Source: Aquanectria penicillioides (taxonomy: Eukaryota; Ascomycota; Sordariomycetes; Hypocreales; Nectriaceae). Taken from it: a DNA stretch of 64,000 bases. The translations under genes were made by a program, and so were the position numbers. How positions within the stretch are numbered: position 1 is the stretch's first letter; every line of letters starts with the position of its first letter. The DNA lies in contig PYIU01000002.1 in NCBI GenBank assembly GCA_003415625.1, forward strand, positions 6,262,001-6,326,000. Reading direction: 5' to 3'. The notes under the pieces were generated by a model, which worked only from the letters and a program-made list of their open reading frames with translations, ran no database searches and was not told the origin of the DNA. Of the stretch, positions 24,699 to 41,294 are shown piece by piece.

Positions 24699-27129
24699 CT
24701 AACAAATACGACACAATACCTTCCCCTCTTCTACTGCATCCCCGTCCTTCCAGAGCGTTTCGAATTCGCCCTGCTTACTCGCCTTGATGCTCACCTCCAT
24801 TTTCATGCTTTCGATGACCATCACCAAATCTCCCGCATTAACCGACTCTCCATTTCCCTTCTTTATGGATAAAACCTTGCAAGGCATTGGTGCAGTAATA
24901 TCCTCCTGCGCTAGCGCCTCCTCAGTCTGGGCTGAAGCACGTTGCATTTCACTCCAAGACAGGAGGGTATCCCTCCGAAATTCAATAAATGTCCCAAGAT
25001 GCGGGAAGTGACAAAATACAGATTGTATATCTGAATGAGATTGTGATTGAGCGGCAGGAGCCACGCAGTAAGCTCGAATCCGTTTCCCTCTCACTGTCAC
25101 CTCCAAGACCGCGGTGCCAGCCATCTGGACCTGCGAGTGACTTTCTGATTTGATTGAACTCCATTTGATAATTTCAATCTCCACAGGTGTAGATGGTTCA
25201 TATCTAAGAATATTGCTTATAGTATTGTATCGTGTAGAGATGATTTTGGCAGCGGGCTCAAGTGTGCTGTCCGACACGCCGCCGCCATTGACGTGAGCAG
25301 ACAATGAAACCAAGCTGGCCTTGGCTCTCCAGAAGCTTTCTTGAGATCCTGCTGGGATCCAAGAGAGCAAGATAGCTTCTTTCAAATATCCTTCCGAGTC
25401 AATGGAAGCGCGAAGTCCATCGTGACTAATAATGTCACAGTGAACATTAACTGGATCATGGTGCTGGTTTCGGAAATGAGGCCGAACGCTGCGGAAGGGC
25501 CGTTTCCTCGGGCTCTTTTCAATATTGCGAGATAAAAATCGAAGAAATGCACCCGGTACTATGCTTAACTCCCGGTTATATCCTTTAGGTGGCAGAAGGA
25601 GGTCGCGGATATTTTCAGTAATGAAGGAAGTTTGGTATCGTGGGTCTTGAAATGCAGGATGAGCCAGGCAATTCTGAAGAAAGCGCTGGTTTGTCCTCAC
25701 TCCAACACAACATGTGTGTTTCAAAACCTCAATCATCTTCTGAATGGCCATGGACCTTGTTGGGGCCCAAACAACAATCTTGGCAATCATGGAATCGAAA
25801 TAAGTTGAAACTGAAGAACCGGTTTGGATAGCTGTCTCGTATCGGACATCCCTGCCTGGTCCAAGGTTACTCTCTGCTGGAAGCCAAAGGTGAATCGAGC
25901 CATGGTCTGGAAAAAAGTCCCGTTGAGGATCTTCAGCACATATGCGGCATTCAATAGCATGTCCAACTTGTCTCATAGACTTGACAGAGGGCAATGAATT
26001 GAGATTGCCTCCTGCAGCGACAAATATTTGCAGACCGACAAGATCTATTCCGGTAACTTCTTCTGTGATTGGATGTTCCACTTGCAATCTGGCGTTGACC
26101 TCAAGAAAAAAGAATTGAGAGGTGTCGACGTCGAATACAAACTCAACTGTCCCAGCATTTGAATAACCGATGAGTTTGGCGATCTCCACTGCAACTTTGC
26201 CCATTTCGAGCCGGATTTTATCAGATAGAAATGGACATGGGCTTTCCTCAATGATTTTTTGATGTCGTCGTTGAACCGAACAATCTCTTTCAAAGAAGCT
26301 CACAACATTTCCATAATTGTCGCCCATGATTTGAACCTCAACATGTTTACTGTTCTGGACATATTTCTCCAAGATACAGTCGCTTGAACCAAATGAACGT
26401 GAAGCTTCGGACTGGACTCGCTCCAGCTCTTCGCGTAACTGTGTCGGCTCTCGAACAATACGCATGCCCTTGCCGCCTCCACCGGCAGACGCTTTCAGCA
26501 TTACTGGGTAGCCGATGCGTTCTGCGGCTTTCTGGAGATCGTCAATTCGGACACTGGAACCAGAAAACCCCGGGATCAAAGGGACCTCAGGGGCATGATC
26601 CATAAGATATTGCTTTGACTTTCTTTTATCGCCCAAGGTTGACATTGCATCCGGGCCTGGACCGATGAATGTGAGACCTGCCTCCAAAACACTGGCTGCA
26701 AATTCGGCATTTTCACTCAAGTATCCGTACCCAGGATGAATGGCATCAGCCTCGAGCTCTAGTGCTGTTTGGATAAGCAATTGAGAGTTTAGGAAAGGGT
26801 TGATTAGATGATCGTTGATGCTGCCGACGTTCAAGGCGTCATCGGCTTCAATAATGTGTCGTGAGGCCTCATCCCTATTTGATTGTAAGCGACAATTGTT
26901 AACGGACCAAGGGAGTCTCGTACTCTTGGACGTAAATCAAGGCAGTTTGAATATTTAATTTTCGACATGTTGAGATGATCCGAGAAGCAATTTCACCTCG
27001 ATTAGCGATTAGAACTTTTCGAATTCCTGGCAAACCGGTATTTTGGTCAATGGGGAGTGGTGCAATGAAAAGCGGATCTCTCTGTGGAAATGCCCCAGAA
27101 GCTGGGCTCGAAAAAAGTTTGGAAGCCAT
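24699..27129 (-). CDS. mccA: 3-methylcrotonyl-CoA carboxylase alpha (biotin) subunit
   Basis: Two exons, 26924-27129 and 24699-26874 (49-nt intron), give 793 aa. It carries biotin carboxylase marks: KVLIANRGEIASRI, HPGYGYLSENAEFA, the ATP-grasp loop KASAGGGGKGMRIV, and EVNARLQVEHPITEEVTG. The C-terminal biotinyl domain has the modified lysine in IESMKMEVS. The subunit carboxylates biotin; with the beta subunit it turns 3-methylcrotonyl-CoA into 3-methylglutaconyl-CoA in leucine breakdown. The start is the ATG at 27129, because upstream frame use needs a GTG. The N-terminus (MASKLFSSPASGAF) is only a weak mitochondrial presequence, and the end (CRIC) is not a PTS1. It lies in tandem behind the beta subunit gene. 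Its promoter carries two CGG(A/T)CCG sites. Pyruvate or propionyl carboxylase is excluded by the neighbours and subunit layout. Confidence 0.92.
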
Positions 27130-27557
27130 CAGATGGATCGAGATTAGATGAGTTATGGTTTGAACATGGATCAATAATCTTGAATTCGTAAAATATGAAG
27201 AGCCTTTCAGCACAAGTGGTGTCCCTCTTTCTCGGATGGGAGATCACGGTCCGTTGTCCGCGCCGCCATCATAACCGACGGCCAAGGCGGACCGATGTAG
27301 TAAGTAAGGCGGGATCACACCCGTGAGTAGCGTCCCGGCCCATCGGATCCGTCCCGAACAAGCCGTATGAATTCCTCGGTATATGGAGCAATTGCAATGC
27401 TGCGACGTCTACGCTGGGAATTTCTTCATTCTGAATGGGCGCATAATCTCAAATGATTGCTCATCGTAGACTCAAAGGGACTGATGGATTGATGGGTGAC
27501 CATGAATGACAAATCATTGGATAATCTACCTGAGCTAGATTTCAAAACTAATTTGAG
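27130..27557 (-). promoter_or_regulatory. mccA promoter with two CGG(A/T)CCG sites
   Basis: CGGTCCG at 27247-27253 and CGGACCG at 27288-27294, about 120-165 bp upstream of the mccA start. The same heptamer recurs in other promoters of this cluster. Confidence 0.55.
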
Positions 27558-39238: not shown

Positions 39239-39587
39239 TTTACGTAGTTGCATAAGGGAATTTCTATAACATGTTAAAAAAGAAGATTTCAATTTGTTGA
39301 AGATCAAGAGGGCGCAAAGACTGCAGTTCGTTAGCTAGGCGTCGAGAAGGCTCGGGCCATGTAAATCAGAGATGCAATGTCACAAGATTTAAGAAAGGTC
39401 ACTAGATATTGATGAAGAGATCAAATTATCAGACTTCACAATCTTATCGATTGTAATCATTGAAGGCACTGGAAACAACGAACAGCATTCCTATACACAT
39501 CGAGAAGTTTTATTTTCCAAAGTCTGTCCTGGGCTATTACTATGTGCATAAATACCCAATACAGCTAATCCTATTGATTGTCACCGT
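39239..39587. other. Short intergenic region between convergent genes
   Basis: 349 bp of 3' flanks of the dehydrogenase and monoamine oxidase genes. Nothing recognised. Confidence 0.5.
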
Positions 39588-41294
39588 TCACAGTCGTGCT
39601 CTGTCACATAGACCAACCCGAACAGCCACTGCCGCACGTGTTCCTTCTTCAATGGCACCATCAATAAAGCTTCTCCACCCCAGTGCCCAGTCAGAACAAG
39701 CAAATACGATGTTTCCATGGCTGGCTCGCATGTCCTGAAGGTGATCTACCAAAAGGCCGGGCCTCGGGAAAAACCTAACAGAGAATTAGTTTTACGGTGC
39801 TATTAATCATCGTTTGTTCTCATCTTACCATGCGCCTTTAGCAAATTCATCCTTGGACCAGTTGTGGAAAACCTGGAATTATGTCTTGGCATAAAATACT
39901 CCACTAGATTCAGGATCCCTACTTACCAGTCTTTGGATCTTCATTGGAGTAAATCCTTGGAATATCTCCTGAGTCTGCTGAATGTCCTCGTCCGGTTGAA
40001 AGTGATTGTGTTGGCCTCCAAATGCGACAATGTGTGTGTTTCCTGCGGGCGTAGTGCCGTCACCAAACCCGTATGAGAGTTTGTTGTGAGGATAGCTAAT
40101 GCTAGTCATTGAACGGAGATCTTTCTCAAGGACCTCTGCGTGAACCTTGATACATTGATTGACATGTCCAATGTCGGCGGCTGATTTCTTCCCCGGAGCC
40201 AGAGGAGGGTCAAAAGCCACATCATTGAGTACGTTCAATGGAATCGCACTAATCATCCTCAATGCCTTGAACTTCTTTCCTGCTCTGGTTGTCACCTCGA
40301 CACCGTTTTGATGATTCTTTATGGACGCTACTGGTGAGTTAAAGACGTACTTGAGATTTCCGGTTGCCAACGCCTCCTGGAAGAAGCGAATTGCAAAGCT
40401 CGATTGGCCGCCACGGAACTTGTACTTGACAAGGTATTCAATACATCCTTCATATGAATACCCACTGAGTGCCCACCAGTGTAAGAATTCGTAGAAACTA
40501 GTTGTCTCAAGAGTTGCTCCACTGCAAAGCAATACAAACGCTTCCAGGCAGTGTCGCTCGTTACTGGTCAGGTTGTGTTGGATCTCAGAGATTCTGTCAG
40601 CGACAGACATGCGGTCATATTTTGCAGCAGCTGGGCCCAAGTTTTCGCTATGGGGGAAAGGGACGGTCTTCCGACCGTTACACCCATCCACATTGACCAG
40701 CTTTTCCAGACTTCGTTGCATCAACTCATCCTACAGAAGGTTAGAACGAATTCCGCTTGTCGAGTATCCAAGAGCTGGAACATACCTCCTCCTTGTGGCT
40801 AAACTGTTGCGTACCATCCGGAGTTACCAAGAGGTATTTATTAAGACCTCGCGAGAAATCATAGGATATTTCAAGCTCATCCTGCATCCCATATCTCGCG
40901 ATTTCACGCCAGACGTTAGCTTGACCCCAGTACACCCAAGTCCCTCCCATCTCATATGGATAGCCATCGATGTTGGATGACCATGAGCGCCCACCAATTC
41001 TATCACGGGCTTCAACAAGTAAAACCTTCAGCCCTATCCCACGCATGGCGTTAGCACGTAGCTCAAGCAATTGCGTCGTCTTTATTGCTAAGTTGATTGA
41101 AGTGGTCAACACGTACCAGCAACGCTAGCATCACGGGCGGCTGTTAGGCCACAGTATCCTGCACCGACCACAATCACATCAAAGTTCGATTCAGATGTGG
41201 ACAGGTTGCTTGGAGGGTTGATGGCGCCGATGCAGGGAACACCGGGTTTCAGGCCTTGGGCCTCGGTCCACGAGAATCCATCTTTGGAAGACAT
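39588..41294 (-). CDS. Flavin monoamine oxidase (MAO-N-like), C-terminal ARL
   Basis: Multi-exon gene, ATG at 41294, TGA at 39588-39590. The dinucleotide-binding start [17 protein letters not shown] is followed after an intron by [14 protein letters not shown] and [12 protein letters not shown], then [19 protein letters not shown] and the C-terminal FAD segment [21 protein letters not shown]. This order is that of fungal monoamine oxidases such as MAO-N of Aspergillus niger, which oxidises simple aliphatic amines to aldehydes with release of ammonia and H2O2. The gene ends with ARL, the same PTS1-type tripeptide known for MAO-N, which is peroxisomal. It is divergent from a permease gene. With the downstream pathway next door, a branched amine such as isoamylamine is an attractive but unproven substrate. 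Confidence 0.9.

What the first reader, a model, noticed from the sequence alone, without database searches (positions are those of the whole stretch)
24699..41294. Isovaleryl-CoA (leucine) degradation cluster apparently relocated to the peroxisome
Seen: the acyl-CoA synthetase ends AKL, the lyase-hydratase SKL, the acyl-CoA dehydrogenase SKL and the monoamine oxidase ARL. MCC-beta ends ARI and has no clear presequence. Known: MCC and isovaleryl-CoA dehydrogenase are normally mitochondrial in fungi, whereas xKL/ARL ends are PTS1 signals, including in MAO-N. Inferred: a parallel peroxisomal route from branched acid to acetoacetate and acetyl-CoA, with MCC-alpha perhaps imported as a complex with MCC-beta. 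A peroxisomal biotin-dependent MCC would be new as far as I know.
Basis: partly seen in the sequence, partly recalled or inferred. Interest (0 to 1): 0.9.

Follow-up and report, generated by a model that had tools for sequence, protein, structure and literature searches.

The report
Fungal peroxisomal branched-acid degradation gene cluster
A fungal gene cluster seems to encode a complete peroxisome-targeted pathway for breaking down methyl-branched acids, built around a biotin carboxylase that resembles a bacterial terpene-degrading enzyme rather than the leucine-degrading one, which would put a chemistry known from bacteria and mitochondria into a new compartment.

Summary
In detail: spliced models end AKL (synthetase), SKL (HMG-CoA-lyase/hydratase fusion), SKL (acyl-CoA dehydrogenase), ARL (MAO-N type) and ARI (carboxylase beta), without evident mitochondrial presequences. 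Among the 120 nearest homologues listed, 115 betas end LAR[I/M/L/F] and 118 fusions end in a PTS1-type tripeptide; alpha has none (0 of 120) and would have to ride in with beta. The leucine reading is weaker. Beta lacks both published MCC marks (Phe191, 3-residue insertion), has the geranyl-CoA carboxylase (GCC) state, and lies outside the clade of the fungus's own MCC; its nearest bacterial relatives mostly sit near AtuA, the acyclic-terpene marker. The dehydrogenase is not in the IVD clade. Best reading: a peroxisomal GCC-type route for 3-methyl-branched, possibly isoprenoid, acids. Against it: GCC also accepts methylcrotonyl-CoA; AtuA is absent from the cluster while a lyase, as in bacterial leucine operons, is present; MAO-N suggests short amines; beta's tail is partly a conserved structural tail. 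Localisation and substrate are untested. New variant of a known kind.

The parts
24699..27129 (-). biotin carboxylase/BCCP alpha subunit (MCC/GCC-alpha type), 793 aa, 1 intron; no PTS1, no evident presequence
   Evidence: Model; Pfam biotin carboxylase N/C, CPSase_L_D2 and biotin-lipoyl domains in the main exon; 0 of 120 listed homologues with strict PTS1
27558..29568 (-). carboxyltransferase beta subunit, geranyl-CoA-carboxylase type, 536 aa, 7 introns, C-terminus LARI
   Evidence: Model; Carboxyl_trans; Gly at the MCC Phe191 column and no 3-residue insertion; LAR[IMLF] in 115 of 120 listed homologues
29933..31950 (+). acyl-CoA synthetase (AMP-forming), 591 aa, PTS1 AKL; shorter start at the second Met (residue 15) possible
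   Evidence: Model; best NCBIfam model is a fatty acid CoA ligase family, below its cut-off
32388..34273 (+). HMG-CoA-lyase / enoyl-CoA hydratase fusion, 601 aa, PTS1 SKL; in-frame upstream ATG at 32343
   Evidence: Model; HMGL-like + ECH_1; human HMGCL 296 bits; AtuE structure 4zu2 second best for the hydratase half
34794..37208 (+). Zn2Cys6-type regulator inside the cluster (cysteine pattern read by eye; full model not completed; end approximate)
   Evidence: Sequence reading, partial model, Fungal_trans exon
37720..39238 (+). acyl-CoA dehydrogenase, 425 aa, PTS1 SKL; not in the IVD clade
   Evidence: Model; Pfam; tree
39588..41294 (-). monoamine oxidase, MAO-N type, 486 aa, PTS1 ARL
   Evidence: Model; 649 bits, residues 1-476, to MAO-N 2vvm

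Best explanation
The cluster encodes a peroxisomal pathway for 3-methyl-branched acids. Inferred order: an acid is activated by the AKL-ended synthetase; the SKL-ended dehydrogenase makes the 3-methyl-2-enoyl-CoA; the alpha-beta biotin carboxylase carboxylates the methyl branch; the hydratase half of the SKL-ended fusion hydrates the resulting 3-substituted glutaconyl-CoA; its lyase half splits off a two-carbon unit, leaving a 3-oxo acid open to ordinary peroxisomal beta-oxidation. The carboxylase is of geranyl-CoA-carboxylase type, so the natural substrate is more likely a longer branched (isoprenoid-like) acid than isovalerate. Beta carries the PTS1 (LAR[I/M/L]); alpha has none and would be imported as a passenger of beta. 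Shown: gene content, C-termini, conservation of the beta and fusion ends, second mitochondrial-looking set, GCC signature, phylogenetic position. Inferred: localisation, passenger import, reaction order, substrate.
For: Gene models and ends. Separate IVD, MCC-alpha, MCC-beta and HMGCL genes whose first 30 residues hold 5-6 basic and no acidic residues. Fungal homologues (best 120 listed per search): 115 of 120 betas end LAR[IMLF], while positions -5, -6, -8 to -10, -12 and -14 to -17 vary (pairwise identity 0.14-0.35); 118 of 120 lyase-hydratase fusions end in a relaxed PTS1, 98 of 120 in strict [SAC][KR][LMI]. At least two of alpha, beta and fusion are linked in 23 strains picked by hand from the listings (tally; unlinked cases were not counted). 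GCC state of the beta column: 115 fungal rows aligned, 113 readable: 100 Gly, 9 Ala, 4 Thr, 0 Phe, no insertion; own MCC-beta and three bacterial MCCs (L124, L136, L137) have Phe plus the insertion; rule from Jurado 2015 (passages). Nearest bacterial betas: 78 of 80 Gly, 1 Ala, 1 unread; of 62 loci over 15 kb (60 of the 80, plus L121 and L123) 57 also encode AtuA within the fetched flanks. CT tree: fungal clade 1.00, MCC clade 1.00. Dehydrogenase tree: window and C13 paralogue 1.00, with Atu-flanking and related enzymes 0.719 and 0.988, apart from the IVD clade, 1.00. The lyase alignment keeps the Arg-Asp, HxH and Cys stretches of human HMGCL (residue roles recalled).
Against: No localisation data. 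GCC can act on both geranyl-CoA and 3-methylcrotonyl-CoA, so the Gly gate permits but does not prove a larger substrate. AtuA is not in the cluster (it occurs elsewhere in the genome), while an HMG-CoA lyase is: none of the 62 bacterial loci over 15 kb has one nearby, but the bacterial IVD/MCC operons L136 and L137 do, so the gene content resembles a leucine operon in that respect. MAO-N and an amino-acid permease next door suggest short amines. The hydratase half does not discriminate AtuE from methylglutaconyl-CoA hydratase. The beta tail is a conserved tail in bacteria too (71 of 78 end FRM), so part of the LAR[IML] conservation may be inherited structure and the signal could be buried in the complex. 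The CT tree is unrooted; the split joining fungal, MCC and Acinetobacter-type branches against the actinobacterial ones has 0.978 support and the order among those three is unresolved (0.101), so the Gly state may simply be ancestral. Identity does not decide: window beta is 39.7% identical to its own MCC-beta, 40.8-42.7% to bacterial MCCs, 41.0-46.7% to bacterial Atu betas, and human MCC-beta outscores PaGCC-beta (436 against 397 bits).
Confidence: 0.55

Rival explanations
1. A peroxisomal isovalerate/isoamylamine pathway: MAO-N makes isovaleraldehyde, which is oxidised, activated and degraded through a peroxisomal MCC-like enzyme to acetoacetate and acetyl-CoA. The Gly gate is only a permissive, perhaps ancestral, residue.
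For: MAO-N-type oxidase ending ARL in the cluster; amino-acid permease next door; HMG-CoA lyase fused to a hydratase, as separate lyase and hydratase genes accompany bacterial IVD/MCC operons L136 and L137; GCC-type enzymes can also act on 3-methylcrotonyl-CoA.
Against: Beta lacks both MCC marks and is outside the MCC clade; the dehydrogenase is outside the IVD clade; the same genome has a canonical IVD, MCC and HMGCL set. Whether MAO-N travels with the cluster in other fungi could not be read.
Confidence: 0.28
2. A biosynthetic, specialised-metabolism cluster that uses the same enzymes in peroxisomes to make branched acyl-CoA building blocks, as peroxisomal siderophore enzymes do with mevalonate-derived units.
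For: A regulator inside and a P450 beside the cluster; fungal peroxisomes host such chemistry (PMC3709128, start of abstract seen); some homologues are named 'putative secondary metabolism biosynthetic enzyme' by their source.
Against: No core synthase (PKS, NRPS, terpene synthase) was recognised in the parts of the window looked at (not an exhaustive scan); the gene set is a complete catabolic chain.
Confidence: 0.1
3. Only beta and the other PTS1 proteins enter peroxisomes and alpha stays in the cytosol, so there is no peroxisomal carboxylase; or the beta tail is a structural relic and beta is cytosolic.
For: Alpha has no PTS1 (0 of 120); the beta tail is conserved in bacteria as FRM (71 of 78), and two bacterial relatives (L138, L139) have Ala at -3 without any peroxisome.
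Against: 115 of 120 listed fungal betas end ARI, ARM, ARL or ARF and all 120 have acidic residues near the N-terminus; synthetase, fusion and dehydrogenase of the window carry PTS1 ends. Piggyback import of folded complexes is an established property of peroxisomes (recalled).
Confidence: 0.06

Closest known systems
Geranyl-CoA carboxylase AtuC/AtuF and the bacterial Atu pathway (Pseudomonas)
   Same: Gly gate and no 3-residue insertion in beta; carboxylase, dehydrogenase, hydratase and synthetase in one cluster; nearest bacterial betas lie mostly near AtuA
   Different: AtuA absent from the cluster; hydratase fused to its own HMG-CoA lyase; PTS1 ends; eukaryote; dehydrogenase related to, but not nearest to, the AtuD-type one
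3-Methylcrotonyl-CoA carboxylase and leucine degradation (IVD, MCC, methylglutaconyl-CoA hydratase, HMGCL), mitochondrial or in bacterial Liu-type operons
   Same: Same reaction types in the same order; alpha-beta biotin carboxylase; HMGCL-type lyase present, as in operons L136 and L137
   Different: Beta signature and clade, dehydrogenase clade, compartment signals, lyase-hydratase fusion; a separate canonical set exists in the genome
Fungal MAO-N (Aspergillus niger, species recalled)
   Same: 649 bits over nearly full length, ARL end
   Different: Only its position beside this cluster is new here

Membership tests
3-methylcrotonyl-CoA carboxylase (beta) | Phe at Pa MCC-beta 191 and 3-residue insertion before it | tested here: not met
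   rule from PMC4673880, passages
3-methylcrotonyl-CoA carboxylase (beta) | Groups with MCC sequences | tested here: not met
   MCC clade with own MCC-beta support 1.00; window in fungal clade, 1.00; unrooted, 46 sequences
Geranyl-CoA carboxylase (beta) | Gly at that column and no insertion | tested here: met
   other family members also have Ala (9) or Thr (4) of 113
Geranyl-CoA carboxylase (beta) | Groups with proven GCC | tested here: inconclusive
   No proven GCC was in the tree; Acinetobacter Atu-cluster beta is joined to the fungal clade with 0.101 support only
Geranyl-CoA carboxylase | Activity on geranyl-CoA | not testable with these tools
   no assay
Atu pathway | AtuA (PF07287) in the cluster | tested here: not met
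   32 PF07287 matches listed in the genome, none inside the window
Atu pathway | AtuD-type dehydrogenase | tested here: inconclusive
   Same larger clade as the enzyme taken as AtuD by its place in L122 (0.93), but nearer to other dehydrogenases
Atu pathway | AtuE-type hydratase | tested here: inconclusive
   4zu2 second best structure hit; gamma-carboxygeranoyl-CoA hydratase model 102 bits, far below its cut-off 426
Isovaleryl-CoA dehydrogenase | Groups with IVD | tested here: not met
   own IVD at C8 is a separate gene
HMG-CoA lyase | Family model above cut-off | tested here: met
   NF004283 371.6 bits against cut-off 246
PTS1 cargo | C-terminal PTS1-type tripeptide | tested here: met
   Met for ACS, fusion, dehydrogenase, MAO and beta; not met for alpha
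PTS1 cargo | Located in peroxisomes in a PEX5-dependent way | not testable with these tools
   no localisation data; Pex5 binding not predicted

The most novel reading that the evidence does not exclude
Many ascomycetes run a complete peroxisomal counterpart of the bacterial acyclic-terpene (Atu) pathway, with a large biotin-dependent alpha-beta carboxylase imported into peroxisomes through a PTS1 on beta alone, a signal that arose by changing the conserved FRM tail of these enzymes to ARM/ARI/ARL.
Probability: 0.42. Interest if true: 0.88.

Novelty: new variant of a known kind. Interest (0 to 1): 0.75.

Why it matters
No biotin-dependent acyl-CoA carboxylase in peroxisomes, and no fungal geranyl-CoA-carboxylase-type pathway, appeared in the lists returned by ten library searches. 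These lists are capped (20 of 4,974 papers, 20 of 9,380, 15 of 30) and the library is open-access only, so this is a weak negative. If right, it gives fungi a peroxisomal way around a beta-methyl block that mammals handle by alpha-oxidation (recalled), bears on how fungi use plant terpenoid acids, offers a large natural test of folded-complex import into peroxisomes, and suggests that database entries of this family named methylcrotonoyl-CoA carboxylase, some of them 'mitochondrial', are misnamed.

Tried and rejected
Considered and rejected: that this is the only MCC/IVD set in the genome. That beta-alpha fusion proteins in databases show alpha reaching peroxisomes: in the 13 such models the order is beta-alpha and the C-terminus is the biotin domain; no LAR tail was found at the junction in the 12 that could be read (P0127 only by a fixed stretch before the alpha start; P0183 gave an empty stretch). 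They look like gene-prediction read-through of two neighbouring genes, but splicing was not excluded. AlphaFold2 model of the beta orthologue P0001: mean pLDDT 65, tail and gate region below 50, not used; no fold search was run (job; some searches found it unfinished; collected the same result three times). Motif patterns failed and were replaced by alignments. Full models of the P450 and the cluster regulator were not completed. One bacterial sequence, L047, was mis-trimmed: it is in the first tree and was dropped from the second. Conservation of the ACS, dehydrogenase and MAO tails in other fungi was not tested, since all three protein searches went to beta, alpha and the fusion. No PTS1, PTS2 or presequence predictor was available; presequences were judged by charge counts and by eye, and the window alpha showed no PTS2-like stretch by eye (consensus recalled). 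The 120 proteins listed per search are the best of 8000 or fewer scored candidates, so the counts describe nearest relatives only. The bacterial set was selected with two peptide patterns drawn from the fungal family, which may favour GCC-type enzymes; one search counts matches at E 1e-10, partial ones included, and its AtuA query came from one of the loci counted (L121). The best explanation was lowered from 0.60 to 0.55 (and the novel case from 0.45 to 0.42, the isovalerate rival raised from 0.25 to 0.28, the last rival from 0.05 to 0.06) after re-reading: lyase genes in bacterial IVD/MCC operons, the 0.978 split, and Ala at -3 in two bacterial relatives.
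Full report
What is there. The window lies at G000:C6:6262001-6326000 of a 53.76-Mb, 13-contig genome. Its nearest protein relatives are from Thelonectria, Neonectria, Ilyonectria and Mariannaea, so it is most likely a nectriaceous fungus (inference). Hand-made gene models with GT-AG introns give, from left to right: alpha subunit of a biotin-dependent acyl-CoA carboxylase (-), its beta subunit (-), acyl-CoA synthetase (+), HMG-CoA lyase/enoyl-CoA hydratase fusion (+), a regulator (+), acyl-CoA dehydrogenase (+) and a MAO-N-type amine oxidase (-). 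The ends are AKL (synthetase), SKL (fusion), SKL (dehydrogenase), ARL (MAO) and ARI (beta); alpha ends RIC. Domain assignments.

Is the targeting real as sequence. ARI is counted as a PTS1 in the search expression of PMC4207609 (passage) and fits the canonical [A/S][K/R][I/M/L] part of the formula quoted in PMC12316961 (passage). In the 120 nearest beta homologues listed, 115 end LAR[IMLF] (ARI 65, ARM 32, ARL 17, ARF 1); L, A and R at -4 to -2 are invariant in those 115, while most of the preceding dozen positions vary. The other five (P0018, P0037, P0053, P0095, P0110) are short, long or partial models with other ends. All 120 have acidic residues in their first 30, unlike the presequences of the canonical set. 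In the 120 nearest lyase-hydratase fusions listed 98 end in strict [SAC][KR][LMI] and 118 in the relaxed set, with Lys or Arg common at -4; a minority of models carry N-terminal extensions. Alpha: 0 of 120 strict; many alpha models listed are truncated at the N-terminus, so their N-termini were not counted.

A caution on beta. In bacteria the same enzymes mostly end G[VI]FRM (71 of 78 readable tails end FRM) and the fungus's own MCC-beta ends YGVFRM. The fungal LAR[IML] tail therefore looks like that conserved tail with Phe changed to Ala at -3. Two bacterial relatives (L138, L139) end VARP, so Ala at -3 is not unique to fungi. This is a neat route to a PTS1, but it also means that some of the conservation may be structural, and that the tail might be hidden after assembly. 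The structure prediction was too poor to judge.

The second, ordinary set. The genome holds a canonical IVD (C8:1958816-1959658, MSSLRTLRALARPVAARQ...), MCC-beta beside it (C8:1962476-1963788, MSLSRSSRQALRLG...), MCC-alpha (C8:2.88 Mb, MRSLRANRRLPLKP...) and HMG-CoA lyase (C7:4.25 Mb, MSLLRSSICRACRR...). Each has 5-6 basic and no acidic residues in its first 30. A second lyase-hydratase fusion on C13 (50% and 57% identical in its two matching stretches) has an Arg-rich N-terminus and no PTS1 in the reading frame seen.

Which carboxylase is it. Jurado et al. 2015 (PMC4673880; passages seen) state that MCC-beta has Phe191 and a three-residue insertion just before it, that GCC-beta has Gly162 and no insertion, that mutating this residue can change substrate preference, and that GCC can be active toward both geranyl-CoA and 3-methylcrotonyl-CoA. 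The window beta reads VFHKG-GQLF without the insertion against VFPDxxHFGR in MCCs. Of 115 fungal rows aligned, 113 are readable: 100 Gly, 9 Ala, 4 Thr, no Phe (counted). In an unrooted tree of 46 sequences the fungal family and the MCC clade, which includes the fungus's own MCC-beta, are each supported at 1.00. The split that joins fungal, MCC and Acinetobacter-type branches against the actinobacterial ones has 0.978, and the order among the three is unresolved (0.101); no proven GCC and no outgroup was in the tree, so Gly may be the ancestral state and Phe plus insertion the MCC innovation. Identity does not decide: 39.7% to own MCC-beta, 40.8-42.7% to three bacterial MCCs, 41.0-46.7% to five Atu-cluster betas; by HMMER score human MCC-beta (436 bits) ranks above PaGCC-beta (397 bits).

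Bacterial neighbourhoods. Of the 80 nearest bacterial betas kept, 78 have Gly, 1 Ala, 1 unread. Of 62 loci longer than 15 kb (60 of those 80, plus L121 and L123), 62 have a match to alpha, 57 to AtuA, 55 to the window dehydrogenase, 48 to the hydratase half, 26 to the synthetase and none to the lyase half at E 1e-10. Annotated examples with AtuA: Tsukamurella, Acinetobacter, Mycolicibacterium, Dietzia, Rhodococcus. Operons annotated with IVD and an MCC-type beta (Rhizobium L124, Azospirillum L136, Mycetohabitans L137) show no AtuA; the last two include a hydratase and an HMG-CoA lyase, which the fungal cluster shares. The Atu steps themselves are summarised from PMC4097962 (passages).

The dehydrogenase. 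In a tree of 16 sequences it pairs with the fungus's own C13 paralogue (1.00), joins dehydrogenases from Acinetobacter (L122, flanking the Atu cluster), Tistrella (L139, beside a carboxylase) and Variovorax (L140, no carboxylase nearby) with 0.719, these with one from Tsukamurella (L121) with 0.988, and then the enzymes of L122 (taken as AtuD from its place) and L126 with 0.93; IVDs form a separate clade (1.00). The IVD, AtuD-type and window sequences carry a Glu before Arg at the position used as catalytic base in IVD (role recalled).

How it probably works. Activation, dehydrogenation, carboxylation of the methyl branch, hydration and lyase cleavage, by enzymes with PTS1 ends or, for alpha, by an enzyme that would have to be carried in with beta. 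The encoded chain is complete, including its own lyase. What enters it is not settled: the gate residue and the non-IVD dehydrogenase favour a longer branched acid; MAO-N, the permease and the lyase fit a short amine-derived acid equally. The linkage of at least two of alpha, beta and fusion in 23 strains (22 species) of Hypocreales, Eurotiales, Chaetothyriales and others (orders recalled) rests on locus tags and shared contigs that I picked (tally); unlinked cases were not counted, and synthetase, dehydrogenase and MAO could not be checked that way.

What is known. Ten library searches listed no paper on a peroxisomal biotin-dependent carboxylase or a fungal GCC-type pathway; several lists were capped, and most listed papers were not opened. 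In the Histoplasma peroxisome proteome paper (PMC13343957, passages) MCC and pyruvate carboxylase appear as endogenously biotinylated proteins used for normalisation. The five papers looked into were seen as passages only. The library lacks most subscription journals.

Noticed in passing
G000:C13:30-60 kb (L035, L036, L040): A second lyase-hydratase fusion with an Arg-rich N-terminus beside a paralogous dehydrogenase, with synthetase-, dehydrogenase- and other acyl-CoA-enzyme-like reading frames nearby: perhaps a mitochondrial sister pathway.
   Followed up: partly
62 bacterial loci and the window: The bacterial Atu-type loci mostly carry AtuA but none shows an HMG-CoA lyase in the fetched flanks (0 of 62), whereas the fungal cluster carries a lyase but no AtuA; AtuA may stand in for the lyase step in bacteria.
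   Followed up: no
G000:C2:1139559-1141237 (L141): A broken alpha-like fragment (48% identical to the window alpha over 130 residues) lies beside a broken AtuA gene, a hint that carboxylase and AtuA were once linked in this lineage too.
   Followed up: partly
G000 genome, PF07287 matches: About twelve strong AtuA loci in this fungus, three of them within C6:620-639 kb, plus a few weak matches.
   Followed up: no
P0127, P0149, P0156, P0161, P0162, P0166-P0168, P0183, P0198, P0201, P0207, P0213: Database models that fuse beta to alpha; in the 12 that could be read the LAR tail is missing at the junction; probably gene-prediction read-through of two neighbouring genes.
   Followed up: partly
window about 22500-24232: Cytochrome P450 gene directly downstream of alpha on the same strand; could oxidise the substrate.
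   Followed up: no
window about 42200-44100: Amino-acid permease family gene next to the amine oxidase.
   Followed up: no
G000:C1:3123450-3124935: Another biotin-carboxylase-like gene (pieces 41-42% identical to the window alpha) with no carboxyltransferase match on that contig.
   Followed up: no
window 3406-7399: NACHT/NPHP3-type NTPase reading frame followed by a WD40-like repeat protein (read by eye), typical of fungal NLR-like genes (recalled).
   Followed up: no
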